Positions 3,268 through 57,320 of a DNA stretch of 64,000 nt are shown here, in pieces. Below the pieces are notes generated by a model. The model did not search any database, was not told the DNA's origin, and saw only the letters and a program-made list of their open reading frames with translations. The DNA is taken from assembly GCA_963383645.1 (NCBI GenBank), contig OY726560.1, positions 152,296,546 through 152,360,545 of the forward strand, read 5' to 3'. Position numbers and translations under genes: made by a program. Source of the stretch: Muscardinus avellanarius. Taxonomy: Eukaryota > Chordata > Mammalia > Rodentia > Gliridae. Numbering within the stretch: position 1 is the first letter of the stretch; each line of letters opens with the position of its first letter.

Positions 3268-3408
3268 GCCAGGCATGGTGGTACACACTTGTAAGTCCAG
3301 TATTTGGGAGGCTGGGAAAGGAGGATTACAAGTTCACGGCCAGCCTCAGCTACTTAGTGAGGCCCTCTGCAACTCAGTGAGACCCTGTTTCAAAAAAATA
3401 AAGAATAA
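3268..3408 (+). repeat. B1-dID SINE, left (B1) half only
   Basis: It begins 'gccaggcatggtggtacac' with the 7SL/B1 box A-like head and runs through 'gtgagaccctgtttc' to the A-rich linker 'aataaagaataa'. There the next SINE begins directly. No ID half belonging to this copy is seen downstream, so it is either truncated or was interrupted in its linker. Confidence 0.85.
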
Positions 3409-3650
3409 GCCAGGCATGGTGGTGCTTATTTGTAATCCCAGCATTGGGGAGGCTGAGACAGGAGGATCTGGGTTTGCAGCCAACCTCAGCTACTTAGTGA
3501 GGCCCTTTGCAACTTAGTGAGACCCTGTTTCAAAATAAAGAATAAAAAATAGTGCTGGGAGTGTAGCTTGGAAGCAGAATGCCCCTGGGTTCAATCCTCA
3601 ATATGGCAAAAAAAATTTAAATAAATAATAAAAATACATAAATAAATACA
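3409..3650 (+). repeat. B1-dID SINE, full-length dimer
   Basis: A complete B1 half, linker 'aaaataaagaataaaaaat', and an ID-like right half ('gtgctgggagtgtagcttgg ... ctgggttcaatcctca') followed by an A/T-rich tail. It abuts the preceding B1 half head to tail. This is subfamily A, with the long 'acttagtgagg' segment. Confidence 0.88.
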
Positions 3651-16463: not shown

Positions 16464-16900
16464 TGCAGGTCTCGTTAGCTTTGAAAGAAGGTGGAGTGCA
16501 ACTGAAGGTACAGGGCCCGGGATACACTTGGGTAGTGACCTGAAGACCTCTGCTGGACATCAAGGCCAACCAGGGCCCCTAGGGGTGACCTGCATTTCTT
16601 TTCTGGCAGATTGCGTGGACTTTGGGAGAAAGCAGTTTGCAATGAAGGCACTTGGCCCGGGATACATTCGGGTAGTGACCTGAAGGCAGATACTGGACAC
16701 CAGAGTCCTGACAGCCCGTAGAGGTGTTCTGCCACTTTCCCTATTCCTTTCTGTCAGATCGCATGGACTTTGGGGGAAAGCAGCTTGCAACTGAAGGCAT
16801 TCAGCTTGGGATACCCTCAAGTATTGTCCTGAAGGCAGCTGCTGGACTCCAGAATTCCGACAGCCTCTTTGGGGTGTTTGGCCTCTTTTCCCTATTCCCT
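16464..16900 (+). repeat. Triplicated ~145-bp units inside the LTR
   Basis: Three diverged tandem units at about 16464-16601, 16602-16750 and 16751-16900. Each carries a 'ctg-cag-t-g-gtggactttg' type start, 'gcaactgaaggca', 'gggatac', 'agt-gtcctgaag' and 'ctgctggac'. The same three units occur in the reverse copy at about 60480-60914, so triplication preceded the spread of these two copies. Confidence 0.85.
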
Positions 16901-18660: not shown

Positions 18661-20081
18661 GTCTCACTCCTGTAGGCCCAGAATGCCAAGAAACAGTGAC
18701 CTATTTTTTTAGTAGTAAAATTCATTCGAGCCAGTAGTTCTCAATCCTTCTGTAACCCCAAGATAACTAAAAAGAGTATGTAACCTATTAGTAGAAGCTG
18801 TTCATGCAGGTAAAGAGTAAAGGAAATGCACCCTCTCGTTTTATGTCAGAATTTCTAGGAAAACGGTATACATTGAAAAAAAAATATCTTCCTGATATTT
18901 TTGATAGGTAGGTCAACTTTCCTGTCCACCTTGGGAATCACTGATAAGCCATTAAGCTAGCTTATTAGAGCATGCCACAGCAAACATATCTTTAAATTAT
19001 GTCTCTAGCCAAAAATAATTTTTAAAAGAAAAAAATACCATTCAGAGCCAATCTATAACCCTCCCTCTGCCCCTTAAACAATAGAAGGAAGATAATTCAC
19101 GGTTACACAGAAGATTCTAATCATAACCCATCTCTAATATAACCATGGTGGTTAAGAGTGCGTCTGCTATTTTAAGTCCATAATTATTTTTTAATAGTAC
19201 TATCATTTCTTTCCATTAAGTCGGTGTCAGTGAACTAGAGCTTGGCCAAAAAAAAAAAAAAAAGTGAAAATGCATGTAGTCAAAAGTTGACTGATAATAG
19301 AAGTATGCCTTTTTTCTTAATCTCTGATTCCAAAATGAAAGGGATAAGAGAAACCAGGAAACATAACAAATGACAACTATTAATTTAGTGGGGGCGCAAT
19401 TTGCATAGTAATGCAGGAAATGTGCTGCTGATGATCACATTTGCCCTATCATTAGAACCCTGAGAAATGCTCAGAACTTGACTGTGTCCTCCACCCGTTA
19501 GGACTTTTTGATAACTAAGCCATCTTCAGGATATGCACTGTTCCCGCAGCCCAAATTGACACCCCTCATTCAGCATATTTTCCGTTTTTGAAAACTTGTA
19601 AATATACATTTGGGGAAAACAAACATAGAAATCACATTCACTTGGTGTTTGACCCATATCTTTTGAAGCATCCCCTTCCCAGTTGGAGCCACATGTCATA
19701 GAGGTTGTAGATTCAGTCTACATCAACATCGAGATCCCTGGTTTCAGGAATTTTGTCACCTGAATACCTTCTAGGATCCTACCCAGGGACATTAAACCAA
19801 CTAAGTTTTTTTTTCTTTTTACCCAAAGAAAATTCTAGAAAGAAAAGCCTAGCAGGAACTTGAGAAGTTAGAAAGTATAGGTGGAGGAAAAGCAAAAAAA
19901 GGAAAGGAACAAAAGATACAGAAATAAGAGTTCACTTCAGTTTAATTATCAAAGTTTTGCATTAATTATGCATTTTCCTACACTAATCTTAGTAACTTAT
20001 CTATCTAGAGTGCTGGACCACACCTTATCATTTCTTGCCTCCATTTATCCAGTCTTGTATGTTTTGGATCCATCTTTCTAT

Positions 20082-27952: not shown

Positions 27953-27967
27953 AAAATTAAGGCAAAG
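27953..27967. repeat. Target-site duplication, left copy
   Basis: 'aaaattaaggcaaag' (15 bp), identical to 30744-30758. It joins smoothly to the old L1 sequence on each side, so the empty site can be read directly. The nick site on the opposite strand reads TTTT/GA, close to the L1 endonuclease preference TTTT/AA. Confidence 0.93.
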
Positions 27968-28792
27968 AGATATAGACTTCCGGGAAGATGGCGACCGAGA
28001 AAAGCAGGGCTTAAGAGTCCCGCTAACAACCAATCTCCATTACCACAAAAAGAGCGCCTTTCATAGCCAGAAAGCACCATCACCAGAAAAACAAAAAAAC
28101 CCACCAGGCTCCAGAGAGAAAGCGGACTGAGAACAGAGCTCAGGGCCACAGAGGAGACACACGCGCCCGAGGACGTGGCAGCAGCGCCATACTGCCGGCG
28201 GCAGCGGCGAACTCAACGGACGGCTACAGCAAGCCAGGTGAGCCGCTGCGGAACAGCCAGGTGGGATCTTTCAGCACAGACAGCATTTAAAGCTCCCAGT
28301 GGCTGAGCTCAGCACACGCTGCAGGGATTCAGAGTGGAAATCAAAACCAGAGAAGAAAAAATACGCCAGCCTCATGGCCGAGGGCGTGGCAGAGGCGCCA
28401 TATTGCCACCGGAGGCGGCAGCAGCAGTGAATTCACCGAGTCCAGTACAGCTACATCTGCGTACTCAAGAACAGTGAGTCAAATTGCGGGCCACAGAGGA
28501 GAAATCGCAGTATTGGGCCTCCTGGGACTTGACCCAGTGAGGGAGTGGTGGTGGCAGAGATATCACACCATAGGAGAACGTGCAACCTGGCACCCCCCAT
28601 AGTTTAAAGCAGCCTCTATCGACTCCCTGGGTCGGAGACTCTGTGATACAACCCAGTAAAGGAGTAGTAGGGTCTGAGATAATACAGACTCGAGATCCAG
28701 ACACCTTAAGTGAAGCCATAGTGACCCAAGGGAAGAACCCAGAGAAGGCACAAACCTCCGAAATCAAGGGAAAGAGGAATAACACTGGAGTA
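27968..28792 (+). promoter_or_regulatory. L1-type 5'UTR with internal promoter candidates
   Basis: The first bases contain 'aagatggcg' (27985-27993), which fits the YY1 site found at the start of mammalian L1 promoters. Two further YY1-like words on the other strand, 'cgccatact' (28185-28193) and 'cgccatatt' (28396-28404), lie in two similar GC-rich blocks, about 28160-28260 and 28373-28475, each reading roughly 'gagg-cgtggcag--gcgccat' then a GGCGGCAG-rich stretch. 'ggccacagaggag' also occurs twice (28144-28156, 28489-28501). The 5'UTR therefore looks internally duplicated, like promoter monomers. Promoter activity is inferred. Confidence 0.65.
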
Positions 28793-29683
28793 ATGAATGT
28801 GCACAACCCCACAACATCAGAACCTGATAAAACAGAAAATCAGAGATTTCTAGAAGATCAAATCAGGAAAATAACTGTAGAAATAATAGAGGTGCTTCGA
28901 AAAGAACTCAGAGAGAGCCAAAAAGAGATAAAGGATGCAATTAATGAAGTAAAGGCCTCAATTCAAAGCACAAACAACCGATTAGACCACATGGGGAACA
29001 GAATCTCGCTCTTAGAAGATGAGCAATCCAAAAATGAATGCATAGTTTCTAATCTAGAAAAAAATATCCAACAGCAGGAATCTGACATTGAAGAAATATG
29101 GGCCCATCTTAAGAGAGCTAACCTAAGAATAATTGGAATAGAGGAGGGAAAAGAAAGTGATACCAAAGGGATCAACAATCTCTTCAAGGAAGTAATAGCA
29201 GAAAATTTTCCAAATATAGAGCAAGAGGTTGATACACAGATCCAGGAAACTTATAGAACTCCCTTTAGACAGGATCGAAGAAGAGGATCCCCACGCCATA
29301 TAATTGTCAAAATGACCAATGTGGAAGCCAAGCAGAGAATCTTAAAGGCAACAAAAACAAAGGGCCAACTGACATTCAGAGGCAAACCAATTAGAATCAC
29401 TCCAGACTTCCCAAACCAAGTCATGAGAGCCAGAAGGGCTTGGAGTAACATATTCCAAACTCTGAAAGAAAACAACTTCCAGCCAAAAATTTCCTATCCA
29501 GCAAAACTTTCTATCAAATTAGATGGAGAAATAAGAAGCTTCCGTGACAAACAGAAACTGAAGGAATTTATGTCTTCAAAACCAGCGCTAGAGAAAATAC
29601 TCAAAGAGATTAACTACAAAGAAGAAATAGGTAACACTCACCAGAACCAGAGAAACAAGAGTTTCCATCCAACAGACAACTAA
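28793..29683 (+). CDS. LINE-1 ORF1 protein (ORF1p), intact
   Basis: It encodes a nucleic-acid-binding and chaperone protein that trimerises and coats L1 RNA in cytoplasmic ribonucleoprotein particles during retrotransposition. The first ATG in frame is 28793, giving 296 residues. The frame is open further up to a TAG at 28571, but that part has no ATG (28580 is GTG). Residues 17-108 are a leucine/isoleucine heptad coiled coil ('DQIRKITVEIIEVLRKELR' and onward). Residues about 109-205 form the RRM-like domain, opening NLRIIGIEEG and with SPRHIIVKM. The C-terminal domain follows with MRARRAW and ISYPAKLS, both typical of mammalian ORF1p. Human ORF1p has 338 residues, so this one has a short N-terminus. 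No stop or frameshift interrupts it. It is the only clear protein-coding frame in the window; whether it is expressed is unknown. Confidence 0.93.
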   Translation: MNVHNPTTSEPDKTENQRFLEDQIRKITVEIIEVLRKELRESQKEIKDAINEVKASIQSTNNRLDHMGNRISLLEDEQSKNECIVSNLEKNIQQQESDIEEIWAHLKRANLRIIGIEEGKESDTKGINNLFKEVIAENFPNIEQEVDTQIQETYRTPFRQDRRRGSPRHIIVKMTNVEAKQRILKATKTKGQLTFRGKPIRITPDFPNQVMRARRAWSNIFQTLKENNFQPKISYPAKLSIKLDGEIRSFRDKQKLKEFMSSKPALEKILKEINYKEEIGNTHQNQRNKSFHPTDN

Positions 29684-29759
29684 GATTGGTTATCTGTGGA
29701 GATTCATTATTTATGTTAGTCTTTTACCTATCTCTAAGTTGTATTGTTTGCCTTTATTG

Positions 29760-30415
29760 TTGTTAATTTTTAGGATTTCTAGTTGGAATATTAATATACC
29801 TTCAGATATAGCATTTGGAAATATTTTATCCAATTCTATTAGTAACTTTTAACTCTGTTTACATTGTCTTTGGATATACAATATTTTCTTTTATTTTTTA
29901 GGGAGTTTGTATATTCTTCTGTTGCCTGTGCCATTGAAATCATATCCAAGAAATCACTGCCAATTTCAATGTTGTGAGGTTTTATGACCCAGATTTTCTC
30001 CTAAAAGTTTATAGTCTTAAGATTTATATTTAGGTCTTTTATCTATTTTGAGTTAATACTTGTATATGGGATTAGGTAAAGGTCCAATTTTATTCTTTTC
30101 CATGTAATTATTATTTTTCAACAATATTTAGTTAAAAGATTATTATTTCCACCATCAAATGTTCGTGGAAACCTTGTCAAAAATAACTTGACAATATAGG
30201 GAAGAATTTAGCTCTAGGCTTGTATTTAACTCCAATGGTCTATATATCTGCCTTTAGAACAGTACTACACTGTTTCAATTATTGTAGCTTTATATGGTTT
30301 GAAATCAGAAAATATATATCTCCTAGCTTTGTTCTTTTTCAAGATCGTTTTGGGTATCTAGAATTCATATTCCATATTAGGATAGATTTTTTTCTGAAAA
30401 ATAAATATATAAATA
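29760..30415 (-). mobile_element. Old L1M ORF2 3' segment, antisense, inside the young element
   Basis: Plus-strand landmarks 'atccaattctattag', 'ttctgttgcctgtgcc', 'catatccaagaaatcactgc', 'tattttgagttaatac', 'aatggtctatatatctgcc', 'attgtagctttatatggttt' and 'ctagctttgttctttttc' follow, in order, the well-known antisense of L1 ORF2 3' coding sequence. By eye it is much more diverged from that consensus than ORF1 next to it is damaged. It fills the place where ORF2 of the young element should be. Confidence 0.8.
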
Positions 30416-30599
30416 TATGATAGTTTCACCTAAAAAAACAGAAAAAAATATGCTCTGGTAAGAAAGAAAGCAAAAAGAAATATTGAAATGCTATCTTTAA
30501 ATCATCAAACGCTTGGTATCAGACAAATGAAACTGTTATGTGAGATTATCATTTTTAATTTTGGATAAATTGCTATAATACTAGATGTCAACCACTAAG

Positions 30600-30743
30600 C
30601 CAAGCATGGGAAGGAGGGATGGGGAGAGAATGGGGTGGGGATCGGGTGGGGGCTGACTGGGCGATGTGTGCATGTATGTCTACAAAAGTTTGTATCCCAC
30701 TATGATATATGAATACAGTGCACCAATAAAATAAAATTTAAAA
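30600..30743 (+). terminator. L1 3'UTR end and polyadenylation region
   Basis: A G-rich stretch ('ggagggatggggagagaatg', 'ggggatcgggtgggggctga') is followed by 'gatgtgtgcatgtatgtc', 'tatgatatatgaatacagtg' and 'caccaataaaataaaattt'. AATAAA at 30725-30730 is a polyadenylation signal. G-rich tracts just upstream of the 3' end are a known feature of mammalian L1 3'UTRs. Confidence 0.8.
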
Positions 30744-30758
30744 AAAATTAAGGCAAAG
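30744..30758. repeat. Target-site duplication, right copy
   Basis: Identical 15 bp to 27953-27967, directly after the A-rich end of the inserted element. Confidence 0.93.
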
Positions 30759-31500: not shown

Positions 31501-31620
31501 TATTTATTTATTTTTAAACTTTCATCCTTACACTGTTCTTCACTGACTGAGTTTCAGTTTAGCAATGAGCAAGCATCACATTTACACAATCAACAGCGTG
31601 ATTTATAAAAGGCCAGAATA

Positions 31621-31670
31621 GCCCAGTATGATGTATGAATATAATGCACCAATAAAATTTTTTAAAAAAA
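31621..31670 (+). mobile_element. Very short L1 3' end (5'-truncated)
   Basis: 'cagtatgatgtatgaatata' followed by 'atgcaccaataaaatttttt' and an A-run equals only the last ~50 bp of the L1 terminus seen at 30743 and 55363. Confidence 0.75.
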
Positions 31671-34503: not shown

Positions 34504-34930
34504 GCTGGGCATGGTGGCACATGCTTGCAATCCCAATACTTGGGAGGCTGAGACAGGAGGACTCCAGGTTTGCAGCCAGCCTTAGCAACTTAGTGAGGCC
34601 CTCCACAACTTTGTGAGACCCTGTTACAAAATAAAGAATAAAAGCCGGCATGGTGGTACACACTTTTAATCCCAGCATTTGGGAGGCTGAGACAGGAGGA
34701 TCACGGTTTACTGATAGCCTCAGCTACTTAGTGAGGCCCTTTGCAGCTCAGTGAGACCCTATTTCAAATTAAAGAATAAAAAATAGGGCTGGAGGTATAG
34801 CTAAGAGGTAGAATGCTTCTGGGTTCCATCCCAAGTACTGCAATAAATAAATAAGTAAATAAAATAGGACTGGGGGTGTAGCTTGAAGATAGAATGTTCC
34901 TGGGTTAAGTCCCCAGTACAAAAGAAAAAA
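34504..34930 (+). repeat. B1-dID SINE interrupted in its linker by another SINE
   Basis: The left B1 half is 34504-34643 and ends in 'aaaataaagaataaa'. The right ID half is 34865-34930 ('taggactgggggtgtagc ... ccccagtac'). Between them sits a complete SINE (34644-34864). Removing it restores one dimer. Confidence 0.88.
34644..34864 (+). repeat. B1-dID SINE nested in the linker of another
   Basis: A full dimer from 'gccggcatggtggtacac' to 'ccaagtactgcaataaata', with a tail of AAAT units that merges with the host linker. It is subfamily A. Confidence 0.88.
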
Positions 34931-55194: not shown

Positions 55195-55363
55195 AAGTTA
55201 ATCACCAAACAAGCATGGGATCGAGGGAGGGGGAGGGAATGGGATGGGGGCTGGATGAGGGCTAATTGGATGATGTGTGCTTGTATATCCTCTCAAGTCT
55301 TGTATTCCAATGTGATGTATGATTACAATGCACCAATAAAAATAAATTTAAAAAAAGAAATAG
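55195..55363 (+). mobile_element. L1 3' end, 5'-truncated
   Basis: 'acaagcatgggatcgaggga', 'gggatgggggctggatgagg', 'gatgtgtgcttgtatatcct', 'gtgatgtatgattacaatgc' and 'accaataaaaataaattt' match the terminus at 30596-30743. It ends in an A-rich tail. Upstream similarity stops at about 55195. Confidence 0.85.
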
Positions 55364-56460: not shown

Positions 56461-57244
56461 AGTAGATGAGCCAGTAAAGAGAGAGGCACCATCTTTCTCT
56501 ATGAAGCAACTTCCACCCCCAAGTCCCCACCCCAACAGGAATGGTTACCTTCCATCAATAGCTGGGCCATTAGCAATCAAGGATCCAGCCCTGGGCCAGA
56601 GCCAGCGCTTCTCAGCACGGATGCTACTGGTACTTGGGATGAAATTTTTCTTTCAGAAAACTTGGTAGCCTCAACCCCAAAGACTAATGCCTGGCTTACC
56701 CTGGCCCCTGCAGGAAGCCAACAACCCTGGCCTGGACCTCAGTCCCAGCATTTTATGCTGGTGGCCATCACAATTCCTGTTCAAAACGCCCCATGATCTG
56801 AAAAAAAGACACAGCCGCAAGGAATGTGCTATACAAATGCTGTGGGTTTAATCATCCATGTATTGAGAAAGGTAGGTACATCAGCTCAGGAGAATCTACA
56901 GTTCAAGTCCAGATGTGCTAAGCTGGGTCCTGATGCAGTCCTGGGCAGCCCGGCAGGGATGGTCAAGCTAGCCATGCTTGACCGATGAGACCCTGACAGG
57001 TTCTGGAGCCTCCAGGCCCACGGTGGCAGAAGAGCTCCGGTCAGCACCTGCCCACTGCAGATTGGAGGATGGACCTTTGGAGAGGAACGTGACACTCTCA
57101 AGTTCACCAGCAAGGTCTGACAGCCATTTCCCACCGTCATTCACAGTAAAATGGAAAGTCACCGCATGTTACAGCCTTCTTGGGCCTCCCCCAGGAATCC
57201 ACCCCCGGATGGCTGGCTCCTGGCTGCCAAGGAGAGAAGAGCAC
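56461..57244. other. Single-copy DNA, nothing certain
   Basis: A short stretch at 56606-56660 ('cttctcagcacggatgctac', 'tacttgggatgaa') may be a MER20 remnant. Otherwise no repeat or gene. Confidence 0.35.
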
Positions 57245-57320
57245 AGGGCAGGGGCGGGACTGCCCAGTGAGAGGACCACCAGGGCAGGGGCGGGACTGCC
57301 CAGTGAGAGGACCACCAGGG
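57245..57320. repeat. 36-bp tandem duplication, perfect
   Basis: Units 57245-57280 and 57281-57316 are identical ('agggcaggggcgggactgcc' then 'cagtgagaggaccacc') with a partial third 'aggg'. Perfect identity suggests a recent event. It gives the repeated peptides seen in frames on both strands. Confidence 0.95.

What the first reader, a model, noticed from the sequence alone, without database searches (positions are those of the whole stretch)
27968..30743. Recently mobilised ORF1-only L1 composite with intact ORF1 and no ORF2
Seen: a 2.78-kb insertion inside a perfect 15-bp target duplication, with a 5'UTR that looks complete, an unbroken ORF1 and the resident L1 3' terminus, yet no ORF2. 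Known: mammals have 'half-L1' (HAL1) families that code only ORF1p and rely on L1 ORF2p in trans. Inferred: this is a member of such a family, or a single chimeric cDNA. An intact ORF1 in a non-autonomous element raises the question of whether ORF1p benefits its own RNA or acts as a parasite of L1 particles.
Basis: partly seen in the sequence, partly recalled or inferred. Interest (0 to 1): 0.75.

Follow-up and report, generated by a model that had tools for sequence, protein, structure and literature searches.

The report
Young, abundant ORF1-only half-L1 family
This insertion belongs to a family with about twenty thousand places in one mammalian genome, a jumping element that kept only the first of its parent's two genes and shares its tail with parent elements that still have both, so it most likely moves by borrowing their copying enzyme.

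Summary
Confirmed: 27968-30743 is a full-length retrotransposed element in a perfect 15-bp target duplication, with 5'UTR, an open L1 ORF1 frame, no ORF2 and an L1 3' terminus. It is not a one-off cDNA: the ORF1-to-tail junction occurs 19,741 times in the same 2.5-Gb genome (<=3 mismatches; control 0). It is a HAL1-type (half-L1) family with a 305-aa ORF1; this copy alone of 57 aligned has lost that start codon. Twenty copies sampled at exact junction matches lie on average 1.5% from their subfamily consensus and 5 of 20 keep ORF1 open over the part seen. An older HAL1 form keeps about 66 codons of ORF2 before the same antisense segment. Autonomous L1s are present too: all 14 scored L1s with ORF2 open for at least 1270 codons were fetched, and 12 carry the same ~900-bp tail, though that L1 junction occurs only 784 times. 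So the 'antisense segment' is a 3'UTR shared by a non-autonomous element and its presumed helper. Likely mechanism: Pol II transcript, own ORF1p, L1 ORF2p in trans. ORF1 is conserved between lineages (dN/dS 0.22-0.33), but within the young family shared and private changes do not differ, so selection on HAL1's ORF1p is not shown.

The parts
27953..27967 (.). 5' copy of the 15-bp target-site duplication
27968..27974 (+). 7 extra bases at the 5' junction of this copy
   Evidence: 13 of 25 full-length copies align from 27975
27975..28765 (+). 5'UTR; begins GACTTCCGGGAAGATGGCG (ETS/YY1-like by recall); contains two ~42-bp related repeats
28766..28768 (+). family start codon of ORF1, AAG in this copy
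   Evidence: ATG in 56 of 57 aligned copies, AAG in the window copy only
28793..29683 (+). ORF1 as open in this copy (296 aa; family frame 28766-29683, 305 aa), L1 ORF1p
29684..30586 (+). tail module: decayed old L1 in antisense; 29838-30583 also forms the 3'UTR of autonomous L1s here; 29690-29837 shared only with the old HAL1 among the copies examined
30587..30743 (+). L1 3' terminus and A-rich tail, with G-rich tract 30608-30661
30744..30758 (.). 3' copy of the target-site duplication

Best explanation
A full-length copy of a young, high-copy HAL1 (half-L1) family. Shown: the junction exists at 19,741 sites; copies have own target duplications and A-rich tails; one copy has a 5' inversion; ORF1 is open in the youngest copies; autonomous L1s with open ORF2 and the same 3'UTR exist in the same genome. 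Inferred: RNA polymerase II transcribes it from its own 5'UTR, its ORF1p coats the RNA, and ORF2p of the autonomous L1 nicks the target and reverse-transcribes it in trans, helped by the shared 3' end. History, inferred from intermediates: an L1 lost ORF2 after about 66 codons and gained a tail of old antisense L1 DNA (old HAL1); the young form lacks a further ~350 bp including the ORF2 stub and ends in the L1 terminus. The antisense tail also became the 3'UTR of most of the ORF2-open L1s examined.
For: 19,741 junctions, reversed control 0. Own target duplications in 21 of 25 full-length copies against 75 of 600 cross pairs. L056 has a 5' inversion, L007 and L046 are 5'-truncated. ORF1 of 305 aa open in 27 of 28 ORF1-selected copies (the window copy being the exception) and, counting one with an in-frame deletion, 20 of 29 copies selected by the tail. 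Old form with ORF2 stub: C10 copy and L061; 40 of 40 scored hits span the stub-antisense junction. 14 of 150 scored L1s have ORF2 open for 1270-1278 codons, and 12 of these 14 carry the same tail.
Against: No expression, protein or mobility data. Open ORF1s could be a mark of youth only: within the young family shared and private ORF1 changes have the same N:S (Fisher p 0.72). ORF1 may not descend unbroken through HAL1s. Orthologous empty sites were not seen. Trans use of the L1 found here is inferred from the shared tail and from papers on other L1s.
Confidence: 0.85

Rival explanations
1. HAL1 is a plain internal deletion of an autonomous L1 that already had the antisense 3'UTR; no module passed from HAL1 to L1.
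For: Both share the module, junction 2 and the L1 end. Module distances are nearly equal: young HAL1-L1 7.6%, young-old HAL1 9.0%, L1-old HAL1 9.3%. Outgroup proteins lean to young HAL1 ORF1 being nearer to L1 than to old HAL1 (6 sites against 2).
Against: The HAL1 module extends further 5' (29690-29837, and further in old HAL1) than in the 12 L1 tails. The two old HAL1 copies whose ends were seen stop where the module meets the L1 terminus. The L1 form is rare, 784 junctions against 19,741, and 2 of 14 open-ORF2 L1s keep the plain 3'UTR.
Confidence: 0.3
2. ORF1 is a passenger: HAL1 RNA uses ORF1p and ORF2p of the autonomous L1, and its own ORF1 decays after each burst.
For: N fraction of shared changes 0.66, private 0.69 (29:15 against 136:62, Fisher p 0.72). 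15 of 20 exact-junction copies have a broken ORF1.
Against: Subfamily consensuses all have an open frame (the old one has one gap in an A-rich run). dN/dS between consensuses 0.22-0.33; against the private-change control young-old p 0.015, HAL1 branches p 0.07, but the path may include life as an autonomous L1.
Confidence: 0.35
3. A single chimeric cDNA made by template switching, or an assembly error.
For: The composite structure alone.
Against: 19,741 copies of the junction on many contigs, own duplications.
Confidence: 0.01

Closest known systems
HAL1 (half-L1) families of mammals (Smit 1999; Bao and Jurka 2010, not held; known here through citing papers)
   Same: Non-autonomous L1 derivative coding only ORF1p (PMC5753468 passage); independent origins in mammals (same passage); HAL1 families in the tables of PMC3183009 for guinea pig (HAL1-1H, -3D, -1G, -1E_Cpo) and marmoset (HAL1-1C_Cja) (passages).
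   Different: No family name could be matched here. In the passage seen, the Spermophilus tridecemlineatus row lists no HAL1. A tail shared with an autonomous L1 was not mentioned in the passages seen.
Autonomous L1 of the same genome (L103 type)
   Same: ORF1 consensus 93.6% identical, same tail from 29838 on, target duplication.
   Different: Has ORF2 with an open frame of 1278 codons; different 5' start and a repetitive GC-rich 5'UTR; lacks 29690-29837.
SVA and LAVA composites
   Same: Composite, mobilised by L1 in trans (start of the abstract of PMC7353768 in the listing).
   Different: They carry no L1 ORF1 coding sequence (recalled).

Membership tests
HAL1 (half-L1) | Codes L1 ORF1p | tested here: met
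   Pfam and solved structures; family frame 305 aa. The window copy lacks the family start codon.
HAL1 (half-L1) | No ORF2 | tested here: met
   No such frame in the window element; colinear copies have the same structure
HAL1 (half-L1) | A multi-copy family, not a single deleted L1 | tested here: met
   19,741 junctions
HAL1 (half-L1) | Spread by L1-type target-primed reverse transcription (duplications, A-rich tail, 5' truncation) | tested here: met
HAL1 (half-L1) | Depends on L1 ORF2p in trans | not testable with these tools
   Candidate helper present: 14 of 150 scored L1s with ORF2 open for >=1270 codons
Autonomous L1 | ORF2 with endonuclease and reverse transcriptase | tested here: not met
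Single chimeric cDNA | Junction unique in the genome | tested here: not met

The most novel reading that the evidence does not exclude
An autonomous L1 with open ORF2 took its 3'UTR from its own non-autonomous half-L1 relative. Host DNA captured when the old HAL1 was born (antisense old-L1 sequence) passed into the autonomous L1, while the young HAL1 ends in an L1 terminus, so helper and parasite now share a ~900-nt 3' end and the parasite outnumbers that L1 form about 25 to 1 by junction count. This would be a genetic record of competition and module exchange between L1 RNAs sharing one machinery.
Probability: 0.5. Interest if true: 0.8.

Novelty: new member of a known kind. Interest (0 to 1): 0.6.

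Why it matters
HAL1s raise an open question: why does a parasite of L1 keep a protein gene? Here is a family with many recent copies, open ORF1s, an older relative, and a candidate helper L1 sharing its tail, all in one genome. That makes cis-preference of ORF1p, the role of the 3'UTR in recruiting ORF2p, and exchange of 3' ends between helper and parasite testable, by statistics over some 20,000 copies and in cultured cells. It also suggests that an L1 3'UTR can be replaced by a module shared with a non-autonomous relative.

Tried and rejected
Rejected: single chimeric cDNA and assembly error. Rejected: the tail as an accident of this copy. Also mended at that check: 7 of 12, not 8 (my note), L1 tails lie within 0.41% of their consensus. 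Not kept: ORF1 selection (omega 0.62, p 0.02), because private changes, used as an inner control, show the same N:S. Not kept: HAL1 monophyly from 21 split sites against 0 and 1; that split is unrooted and outgroup proteins do not back it (at 12 HAL1-versus-L1 residues the outgroup agrees with HAL1 8, L1 2, other 2; at 12 old-versus-rest residues with old 6, rest 5, other 1; at 11 young-versus-rest with rest 6, young 1, other 4). Dropped: 'CTAGATG' before the L1 end as proof of insertion into an L1 3'UTR.

Led nowhere: the species was not identified. The nearest named ORF1 proteins are marmot and Spermophilus at 50-55% identity; unnamed fragments reach 71-76%. Rfam: no match in the window. Counts of the 5' end, junction 2 and the old HAL1 3' end were asked for and never answered. 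Bao and Jurka 2010 is not held.

Rows dropped: L009 (the window again) from alignments; L083, L086, L098, L099 from the old-HAL1 consensus (L061 and the C10 copy added); unaligned left parts of L070 and L079.

Full report
A 2,776-bp element (27968-30743) lies in a perfect 15-bp duplication. It has a 5'UTR, an open ORF1 frame with both L1 ORF1p Pfam domains, about 900 bp of AT-rich sequence and the last 157 nt of an L1. Seven bases at the left end look private to this copy: 13 of 25 full-length copies align from 27975 and 23 of 25 from 27968-27976. The family's ORF1 starts at 28766 (305 aa); 56 of 57 aligned copies have ATG there and the window copy alone has AAG. So this copy is open only from the next ATG, 28793 (296 aa), and may itself be a poor source of ORF1p.

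It is a family. The genome of the window is held (2.497 Gb, 104 contigs). ORF1 DNA gave 1,372 first-look candidates; the 40 scored are all printed as 100% identical. The middle segment gave 1,048, the 40 scored being 98-100%. Of the 28 copies taken through ORF1 (window included), 25 are full-length, two 5'-truncated (L007, L046) and one 5'-inverted (L056); identity to the window is about 97-99%. A 40-mer over the ORF1-tail junction occurs 19,741 times with up to 3 mismatches, the reversed pattern never. Target duplications: 21 of 25 own flank pairs pass (>=11 nt, at least two non-A letters) against 75 of 600 cross pairs.

Age and coding state. Copies fetched by similarity are biased to young ones: ORF1 is open from 28766 in 27 of 28 taken through ORF1 and 20 of 29 taken through the tail, one with an in-frame deletion. 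A less biased set, 20 of the listed exact junction matches, all on contig 1, has 5 of 20 open over the part seen, one with an in-frame deletion; exact matches still lean to youth, and the first codons were not fetched. These 20 lie on average 1.5% from the nearer of two subfamily consensuses, 6 in the window's subfamily at 0-0.9% and 14 in the other at 0.8-4.1%. With a usual mammalian neutral rate (recalled) that is several million years, less for the window's subfamily.

An older form exists. A copy on contig C10 (L035, L059, L060) has the same 5' start, ORF1 80% identical to the window, then about 66 codons of ORF2, then the antisense segment (86%), and a target duplication that closes before an L1 3' terminus found further on. 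L061 has the same order and its similarity ends at the same place without the L1 terminus. A query over the ORF2-stub/antisense junction had 2,253 candidates; all 40 scored cover nearly the whole query. Relative to L061 the window's family lacks 346+8 bp here and ends in the L1 terminus.

The helper. A search with the ORF2 C-terminus of an L1 beside a HAL1 copy gave 142,398 candidates; 14 of the 150 scored lie in open frames of 1270-1278 codons. One (L103) was fetched nearly whole: ORF1 of 305 aa, ORF2, and a 13-bp target duplication. The tails of all 14 were fetched: 12 carry window-equivalent 29838 to the L1 end, with the same junction 2; 2 carry a plain L1 3'UTR. In 7 of the 12 the module is within 0.41% of their consensus, the other 5 at 1.4-2.1%. 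The ORF1 of one plain-tail L1 has a frameshift. The junction specific to the new L1 tail occurs 784 times, reversed control 0. So HAL1 and this L1 share a 3' end, and HAL1 is about 25 times more numerous by junction count. Part of the module is antisense to L1 ORF2: 30219-30308 matches L103 ORF2 in reverse (E 8e-7), and old copy L061 does so at E 2e-9.

Who gave the tail to whom. The HAL1 module is longer than the L1 one at its 5' side, and the old HAL1 ends where the module meets the L1 terminus. This favours an origin in the old HAL1 and later transfer to L1. Module distances (7.6, 9.0 and 9.3%) are too even to decide. I hold the transfer at 0.5.

Selection on ORF1. Between consensuses dN/dS is 0.22 (young-old), 0.24 (young-L1), 0.30 (window subfamily-old) and 0.33 (two young subfamilies, 11 N and 8 S). 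Against 75.1% N expected from non-coding changes these have p 1e-4, 1e-4, 0.002 and 0.11. But private changes inside ORF1 give 69% N, and against them p is 0.015, 0.020, 0.096 and 0.44; for the HAL1 branches as polarised (22 N, 19 S) it is 0.07. Inside the young family shared changes (29 N or stop, 15 S) do not differ from private ones (136, 62; Fisher p 0.72). Indels: none in ORF1 against 57 substitutions between young HAL1 and L1, 5 against 56 in the tail. Outgroup proteins allow that the young HAL1 took ORF1 anew from an L1. So constraint between lineages is likely, and constraint during life as a HAL1 is open.

Mechanism. Work in human cells (PMC2666806, abstract) reports that Pol II-made transcripts need ORF1p as well as ORF2p, and a review (PMC4859970, passage) notes movement of a marked ORF1 construct and links it to HAL1. 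The likeliest cycle is own promoter, own ORF1p on its RNA, ORF2p borrowed, target-primed reverse transcription. The G-rich tract in the shared end (30608-30661) may help recruit the machinery; that is inference.

Literature. HAL1 is a known kind (PMC5753468, PMC4161310, PMC4859970, passages); HAL1s are listed for guinea pig and marmoset (PMC3183009, passages). The listings of searches showed no title or abstract start on an L1 sharing its 3'UTR with a HAL1; most listed papers were not opened, and the main HAL1 paper could not be read.

Noticed in passing
window 55210-55356 and 31619-31670: Two other L1 3' ends (80% and 83% to the element's 3' end).
   Followed up: partly
window 28766-28768: Family start codon of ORF1 reads AAG in this copy only (1 of 57 aligned), so the 'intact' ORF1 begins 27 bases downstream.
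   Followed up: yes
L056 (C8:6984144-6988024): HAL1 copy whose 5' part (27974-28714) is inverted next to the rest, as in L1 twin priming.
   Followed up: no
L062 (C2:59996830-60000881): Old HAL1 antisense segment up to 30398 followed by sense L1 ORF2 C-terminus; another chimera or a nested insertion.
   Followed up: no
L002 (C23:46178792-46182672): HAL1 copy inserted inside the ORF1 of another HAL1 copy (92-93% pieces on both sides).
   Followed up: no
L103 351-1268: The autonomous L1 has a GC-rich, internally repetitive stretch of several hundred bp in its 5'UTR that HAL1 lacks, and its 5' start lacks the leading GACTTCCGGGAAGATGG of HAL1 (one copy seen).
   Followed up: no
P0028 (public protein record): An entry named exonuclease III of Chlamydia trachomatis has L1 ORF1 Pfam domains joined to an endonuclease-type stretch; it looks like mammalian L1 contamination.
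   Followed up: no
window 3268-3535, 34508-34781, 16596-16898, 57244-57320: Tandem pairs: two SINE-like dimers (~140 bp units), a 149-bp pair and a 36-bp pair (100% matches).
   Followed up: no
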